Shown piece by piece: positions 21,893 through 22,103 of a stretch of DNA of 64,000 bases (the stretch's first letter is position 1; every line of letters begins with the position of its first letter). The position numbers and the translations under genes were made by a program. The DNA is taken from assembly GCA_001801685.1 (NCBI GenBank), contig MGYJ01000061.1, positions 220,924-284,923 on the forward strand, given 5' to 3'. Origin of the DNA: Gammaproteobacteria bacterium RIFCSPHIGHO2_12_FULL_63_22 (GTDB taxonomy: Bacteria; Pseudomonadota; Gammaproteobacteria; Xanthomonadales; Xanthomonadaceae). A model generated the notes under the pieces. That model ran no database searches. It saw only the letters and a program-made list of their open reading frames with translations, and was not told the DNA's origin.

Positions 21893-21927
21893 AAAAAACC
21901 CCGCATCCGTTTCCGGGTGCGGGGTTT
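21893..21927 (-). terminator. Attenuator terminator in leuA leader
   Basis: Minus: AAACCCCGCACCCG-GAAA-CGGATGCGGGGTTTTTT, long stem with one mismatch plus U tract, between leader stop and leuA ATG. Confidence 0.9.
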
Positions 21928-21965
21928 CAGGTTTTATCGTCAGTTTCAGTATTCGACGAACGCCC

Positions 21966-22103
21966 TCAGCCCGCACCTCCGGGGATAATAAGGACGAGTA
22001 CGAGTACGAGCGCTACGAGGGCCGACAGCGGCGCCAAGCCAATCGCGAACACCGGGAGGACCCGGGCGTTCTGGATTGCGTGCGTGGCGTGGTGTGAAGG
22101 CAT
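21966..22103 (-). CDS. leu/ilv operon leader peptide (45 aa)
   Basis: MPSHHATHAIQNARVLPVFAIGLAPLSALVALVLVLVLIIPGGAG*; dense Leu/Val/Ile codons directly upstream of the attenuator; below the ORF track size cutoff. Confidence 0.9.
   Translation of the reverse strand: MPSHHATHAIQNARVLPVFAIGLAPLSALVALVLVLVLIIPGGAG

What the first reader, a model, noticed from the sequence alone, without database searches (positions are those of the whole stretch)
21893..22103. Unannotated leu/ilv attenuator: 45-aa leader peptide with LVALVLVLVLII plus terminator and exact antiterminator complement
Seen: minus-strand ORF MPSHHATHAIQNARVLPVFAIGLAPLSALVALVLVLVLIIPGGAG* with 11 of 12 consecutive Leu/Val/Ile residues, then a strong terminator (21893-21927) before leuA. 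GGTGCGGG, overlapping the leader's 3' end (21977-21970), is perfectly complementary to CCCGCACC in the terminator's 5' arm. A ribosome stalled in the Leu/Val run leaves this segment free (antitermination); one reaching the stop codon covers it (termination). Attenuation of ilv/leu operons is established in enterics. Here one leader would control a 10-gene operon sensing Leu, Val and Ile together.
Basis: partly seen in the sequence, partly recalled or inferred. Interest (0 to 1): 0.85.

Follow-up and report, generated by a model that had tools for sequence, protein, structure and literature searches.

The report
Leader-peptide attenuator before leucine operon
This looks like a genuine ribosome-stalling genetic switch that lets a bacterium turn on its ten genes for making leucine, valine and isoleucine when those amino acids run short; the mechanism is textbook, but the switch is conserved across a whole bacterial order and its small peptide seems to start at the very first base of the RNA.

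Summary
On the minus strand a 45-codon ORF (22103-21966) carries LVALVLVLVLII. Terminator 21927-21893 and leuA (start 21867) follow. GGTGCGGG (21977-21970) is exactly complementary to the terminator's 5' arm (21923-21916). No shuffle in 5000 matched the L/V/I run.

The interpretation, ribosome-mediated attenuation of a ten-gene leu/ilv operon, is strongly supported by comparison but not proven by experiment. A covariance model of the leader matches 321 of 398 genomes of the order. Of 85 in-order matches inspected, 84 lie just upstream of a leuA, ilvD or ilvC homologue. The antiterminator pairing is kept through compensatory changes, and the terminator changes with it. In modelled nascent RNA the antiterminator forms when the ribosome stalls on the run and fades just beyond it (18 of 19 leaders tried).

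Refinements: the leader ATG lies 5-9 nt after the -10 in 69 of 69 leaders, so a leaderless mRNA is predicted; Leu and Val stalls should work better than Ile stalls; the window's operon and leader look transferred from a Tahibacter-like bacterium.

Known kind: BCAA attenuators are classical and, from memory, were predicted in Xanthomonas/Xylella (Vitreschak 2004). Leaderless ones are known in Corynebacterium, Streptomyces and Sinorhizobium.

The parts
22134..22139 (-). -35 box TTGACA
   Evidence: Sequence; TTGACA, TTGACG or TTGACT at the corresponding place in 69 of 69 leaders
22110..22115 (-). -10-like box TAGTGT, 18-nt spacer
   Evidence: the element itself matches the consensus weakly here (3 of 6), support is its conserved position
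21966..22103 (-). leader peptide ORF, 45 codons, predicted leaderless (ATG 6 nt after the -10)
   Evidence: relatives
21984..22019 (-). control codons CTC GTA GCG CTC GTA CTC GTA CTC GTC CTT ATT ATC (LVALVLVLVLII); also region 1 of the 1:2 hairpin
   Evidence: codons; chance; 1:2 pairing
21970..21977 (-). region 2, antiterminator 5' arm GGTGCGGG, overlaps codons 43-45 (Gly-Ala-Gly)
21937..21959 (-). small hairpin TCGTCG/TGACGA between leader stop and terminator, lies in the antiterminator loop
   Evidence: a stem of different sequence at this place in many relatives
21893..21927 (-). intrinsic terminator (region 3:4) with T6 tail; region 3 CCCGCACC 21923-21916, region 4 21909-21896
20236..21867 (-). 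leuA, first gene of the operon
   Evidence: NCBIfam 2-isopropylmalate synthase
10405..20239 (-). rest of the operon: ilvE, leuC, leuD, leuB, ilvD, ilvC, ilvG, ilvM, ilvA
   Evidence: and gene order

Best explanation
This is a ribosome-mediated transcription attenuator that controls the leuA-ilvE-leuCDB-ilvDCGMA operon by the supply of charged branched-chain aminoacyl-tRNAs. Transcription is predicted to start at or within a few bases of the leader ATG, so the leader peptide is translated from a leaderless mRNA. When Leu or Val (and less strongly Ile) tRNAs are uncharged, the ribosome stalls in the LVALVLVLVLII run. It then covers region 1 but leaves region 2 (GGUGCGGG) free to pair with region 3 (CCCGCACC) before region 4 is made; the terminator cannot form, and the operon is transcribed. 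When amino acids are plentiful the ribosome runs to the stop and covers region 2; after release, or without translation, region 2 is held by the run codons (1:2 hairpin). The 3:4 terminator then stops transcription before leuA. Shown here: all parts, their conservation, the covariation and the positional logic. Inferred: transcription start, termination efficiency and response to starvation.
For: Elements at stated positions; run beyond chance and rich in rare codons. Leader peptide conserved upstream of leuA in Tahibacter, Dyella, Rhodanobacter, with the end LVLVLLITxGGAG*. Covariance model found in 321 of 398 genomes of the order and 163 of 199 of the family, against 33 of 291 across the class at a stricter cut-off, mostly weak. 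In 84 of the 85 in-order matches inspected a leuA, ilvD or ilvC homologue lies just downstream; the exception, L160, had no hit. Region 2:3 pairing 93.5% of cells, 10 double-changed cells, covariation 0.165 against 0.051 shuffled, 0 of 500; terminator pairing co-changes. In modelled nascent RNA, stalls on run codons give the 2:3 antiterminator in 18 of the 19 leaders tried (L142 could not be scored), and pairing falls off once the ribosome has passed the run. 1:2 hairpin in the free fold.
Against: No experiment: start site, terminator strength and induction are untested. The model assumes a 13-nt downstream ribosome footprint and uses free energies, not kinetics; around the end of the run some leaders still show partial or alternative pairing. 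Region 2 was located by best complementarity to region 3, which inflates the percentage paired. Double changes fall at only two of eight pairs. Two distant leaders (L183, L189) could not be scored clearly and L004 does not fit the ungapped block; all three were left out of the pair count; L148 has a weakened 2:3 pairing. L160 has no recognised downstream gene.
Confidence: 0.93

Rival explanations
1. The terminator simply ends the upstream transcript (and, being near-symmetric, perhaps a transcript from the other side); the L/V/I ORF is a chance frame.
For: A terminator after an upstream gene is common; the hairpin also looks terminator-like on the other strand.
Against: The ORF, its run, its position, the promoter and the 2:3 complementarity are conserved in front of leuA, ilvD and ilvC, in different gene orders; no shuffle gives the run.
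Confidence: 0.02
2. The hydrophobic 45-aa peptide is itself the functional product (a small membrane peptide or toxin), and its position before leuA is incidental.
For: A hydrophobic C-terminal stretch; leader peptides can act in trans (peTrpL in Sinorhizobium, PMC7298713).
Against: The peptide varies from 28 to 55 residues and in sequence; what stays is the control codons, their distance to region 2, and the RNA pairing. It lies upstream of BCAA genes in 84 of 85 inspected cases.
Confidence: 0.03
3. The leader controls leuA by another RNA mechanism (T-box, riboswitch or protein-binding), with the ORF as passenger.
For: Strong conserved secondary structure.
Against: No Rfam family reaches its threshold; the best sub-threshold hits include the Thr and Leu operon leaders. 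The run ends about where stalling still frees region 2, across clades, which a translating ribosome explains and these rivals do not.
Confidence: 0.02

Closest known systems
Enterobacterial leuABCD and ilvGMEDA / ilvBN attenuators (Rfam Leu_leader RF00512)
   Same: BCAA-codon leader peptide, 1:2, 2:3 and 3:4 alternative hairpins, intrinsic terminator before the first structural gene
   Different: No Rfam match (13 bits against a gathering score of 50); no 5' UTR or Shine-Dalgarno predicted; mixed Leu-Val run in one leader for a fused leu-ilv operon; antiterminator arm coded inside the peptide's last codons (Gly-Ala-Gly)
ilvCGM-tdcB-leuA attenuators predicted in Xanthomonas/Xylella (Vitreschak et al. 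2004, FEMS Microbiol Lett 234:357; content recalled from memory, text not held)
   Same: Same order of bacteria, same pathway; the Xanthomonadaceae leaders before ilvC or ilvD found here are very likely that element
   Different: Here the first gene is leuA and the operon has ten genes; leaderless start, order-wide distribution and transfer are, as far as I know, not in that work (could not be checked)
ilvBNC attenuator of Corynebacterium glutamicum (PMC11857589) and leaderless ilvL/leuL of Streptomyces lividans (PMC8079986)
   Same: BCAA leader peptide translated from an mRNA that starts at or one base from the ATG
   Different: Actinobacteria; peptides of 12-15 residues; no homology was tested or is evident
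trpLE(G) attenuator rnTrpL of Sinorhizobium meliloti (PMC7298713)
   Same: Proteobacterial attenuator whose transcript starts with the leader ATG
   Different: Trp codons, 14-aa peptide, alphaproteobacterium

Membership tests
Ribosome-mediated BCAA transcription attenuator | Short ORF with a run of the regulating amino acid's codons upstream of the biosynthetic operon | tested here: met
   conserved in relatives
Ribosome-mediated BCAA transcription attenuator | Intrinsic terminator between leader ORF and first gene | tested here: met
Ribosome-mediated BCAA transcription attenuator | Mutually exclusive antiterminator pairing with the terminator 5' arm, kept by compensatory change | tested here: met
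   UA, CG, AU, GC at one pair and GC, UA at its neighbour
Ribosome-mediated BCAA transcription attenuator | Stall position on control codons frees, and stop-codon position covers, the antiterminator arm | tested here: met
   with an assumed 13-nt downstream footprint; modelled, not measured
Ribosome-mediated BCAA transcription attenuator | Readthrough rises on Leu/Val/Ile limitation and depends on leader translation | not testable with these tools
   Needs reporter or Term-seq
Rfam Leu_leader (RF00512) | Score above the family's gathering threshold | tested here: not met
   13 bits against 50; same working principle, not a member of that RNA family
Leaderless leader-peptide attenuators | Transcription start at the leader ATG | tested here: inconclusive
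   Promoter geometry in 69 of 69 leaders predicts it; no start-site data found
Xanthomonas/Xylella ilv-leu attenuator of Vitreschak 2004 | Identity with the element published there | not testable with these tools
   Paper not held; recalled only

The most novel reading that the evidence does not exclude
An entire order of Gammaproteobacteria runs its branched-chain amino acid operon through one ancestral attenuator whose leader ORF is obligatorily leaderless, so operon output depends both on BCAA-tRNA charging and on whatever controls leaderless (70S) initiation; the element stays at the front as the operon is reshuffled (leuA, ilvD or ilvC first) and is transferred between families with the operon.
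Probability: 0.3. Interest if true: 0.55.

Novelty: new member of a known kind. Interest (0 to 1): 0.36.

Why it matters
It gives a well-supported and testable regulatory model for the BCAA operon of a large group that includes plant pathogens and soil bacteria, and it is absent from Rfam. The conserved promoter-ATG distance suggests a leaderless attenuator in Gammaproteobacteria, where the textbook examples (enteric leaders) have 5' UTRs with ribosome-binding sites. It also offers a natural series (three different first genes, at least four antiterminator sequence types) for studying how such switches evolve.

Tried and rejected
Rfam at gathering and at permissive thresholds: no family. sigma-70 scan of the region: no hit by its strict rule, because the -10 is poor; the conserved geometry in relatives was used instead. 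First pass of the leader search missed minus-strand loci and was repeated. Automatic region-3 detection failed for L163 (it picked a loop) and L142; L163 was treated as L162, and L142 was added by hand. L004, L183 and L189 were left out of the pair count. Literature searches for a published Xanthomonadales leader or start-site map gave nothing usable. Class-wide model hits outside the order: four lie before ilvG-like genes, three of them with an evident I/V-rich short ORF of their own, and one before a distant ilvC-like gene; the rest have no ilv/leu homologue nearby and look like chance terminator matches.

Full report
OBSERVATION. The minus strand of the window carries, 5' to 3', a TTGACA box (22139-22134), an 18-nt spacer, a -10-like TAGTGT (22115-22110), then a 45-codon ORF from ATG 22103 to the stop at 21966, a terminator hairpin with six Ts (21927-21893), and leuA from ATG 21867. 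The peptide is MPSHHATHAIQNARVLPVFAIGLAPLSALVALVLVLVLIIPGGAG. GGTGCGGG (21977-21970, in codons 43-45) is exactly complementary to CCCGCACC (21923-21916) in the terminator's 5' arm. In 5000 dinucleotide shuffles of the intergenic DNA no frame had more than 9 of 12 L/V/I, against 11 here, and the run is unique among 108,157 twelve-residue stretches of the window. The run uses codons that are scarce in the operon itself (GTA 3.5%, CTT 4.5%, ATT 5.4%) and no CTG (62% of Leu codons).

OPERON. NCBIfam assigns leuA, ilvE, leuC, leuD, leuB, ilvD, ilvC and ilvG with scores above curated cut-offs, and a threonine dehydratase-like ilvA below its cut-off; a frame between ilvG and ilvA reads as an ACT-domain ilvM (my reading). 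So the ten-gene operon is right.

RELATIVES. The same peptide end (LVLVLLITxGGAG*) precedes leuA in Tahibacter, Dyella and Rhodanobacter. A covariance model built from twelve leaders, with only the terminator as structure, matched 321 of 398 genomes of the order and 163 of 199 of the family. In a class-wide sample at a stricter cut-off, 33 of 291 genomes matched, mostly weakly. I inspected 85 matches inside the order (69, 14 further loci, two; some are repeat records of the same species or genome). In 84 a leuA, ilvD or ilvC homologue lies just downstream; L160 had no tblastn hit in the stretch examined. The first gene is leuA in the Rhodanobacteraceae-type operons and the window group, and ilvD or ilvC in most others. 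The leader therefore stays in front while the gene order behind it changes.

COVARIATION. Across 31 distinct region 2/3/4 triplets, region 2:3 pairs in 93.5% of cells. The variable pair is found as UA, CG, AU, GC and wobbles, its neighbour as GC and UA. Ten cells are changed on both sides; covariation score 0.165 against 0.051 in shuffles, none of 500 as high, and sliding the partner destroys it. The terminator pairing shows the same. Region 2 has G at its second position in all 68 triplets first extracted, although the terminator's own 3' arm varies there among A, G, T and C. So the antiterminator complementarity seems to be kept for its own sake. Caveats: region 2 was found by its complementarity, and double changes sit at only two of eight pairs.

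POSITIONAL LOGIC. I modelled nascent RNA ending before region 4, with a ribosome that hides everything up to 13 nt past the start of the A-site codon. In the window leader, stalls at Leu and Val codons give 9-11 antiterminator pairs (-27 to -30 kcal/mol), and the first Ile codon gives 7 pairs (-23). Pairing is gone at codon 41 (Pro) and beyond. Of 19 leaders tried, 18 behave alike, with the fall-off at or within a few codons of the end of the L/V/I run (some partial or alternative pairing persists near the boundary); L142 could not be scored because its hairpin was mis-located by the script. This holds also in the Xanthomonadaceae leaders, where region 2 mostly lies 21 nt before the stop instead of 9. 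In the unoccupied RNA, run codons GCUCGUACU pair with GGUGCGGGC, the classical 1:2 protector hairpin.

LEADERLESS START. In 69 of 69 leaders a TTGACN box lies so that the ATG is 5-9 nt after the -10 position (67 directly, 2 when the upstream in-frame ATG is taken; mode 7). More distant families show the same spacing by eye in most cases. Transcription would start at or next to the ATG, as reported for BCAA leaders of Corynebacterium and Streptomyces and for trpL of Sinorhizobium. This is a prediction from promoter geometry; no start-site data were found. The 69 leaders are related and are not 69 independent events.

EVOLUTION. The window's leuA groups with Tahibacter (support 0.98) inside the Rhodanobacteraceae-type clade (0.999), together with three other genomes of its genus. 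Five further genomes of the same genus carry the Xanthomonadaceae-type leuA, and most others had no leuA match of that kind. The operon, with its leader, was probably acquired horizontally; family names are inferred from named relatives, since the genome handles carry none.

VERDICT. A real attenuator of a known kind, as far as sequence evidence can show. From memory, Vitreschak et al. 2004 predicted ilv-leu attenuators in Xanthomonas and Xylella; that text is not held, so I could not compare directly. Experimental proof of regulation is lacking.

Noticed in passing
window 10405-21867 and L002, L003, L004 against L020, L022-L024, L026: Within one genus two versions of the BCAA operon exist: a Tahibacter-like leuA-first operon (window, three relatives) and the family's own type with leuA further back; most other members gave no leuA match. 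Suggests transfer of the operon with its attenuator.
   Followed up: partly
window 21975-21980 (-), GGAGGT: The antiterminator arm overlaps a perfect Shine-Dalgarno-like GGAGGT at the end of the leader ORF, conserved in the Rhodanobacteraceae-type leaders; it might itself slow ribosomes or bind 30S subunits.
   Followed up: no
L193, L196, L199, L206: Outside the order, weak model hits lie before ilvG-like genes and mostly have their own short I/V-rich ORFs, for example MFGFNSMVQIINSIIVVVITSARCGPMR with GAGGTGCGGG complementary to its terminator; probably other BCAA attenuators.
   Followed up: partly
L179, L180: One family has an almost pure Leu run (LLLLLLRI) before leuA, so that leader should sense mainly Leu.
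   Followed up: no
window 22180-23169 (-): The upstream gene looks like a cytochrome bd oxidase subunit II (cydB) by eye; not checked against a profile library.
   Followed up: no
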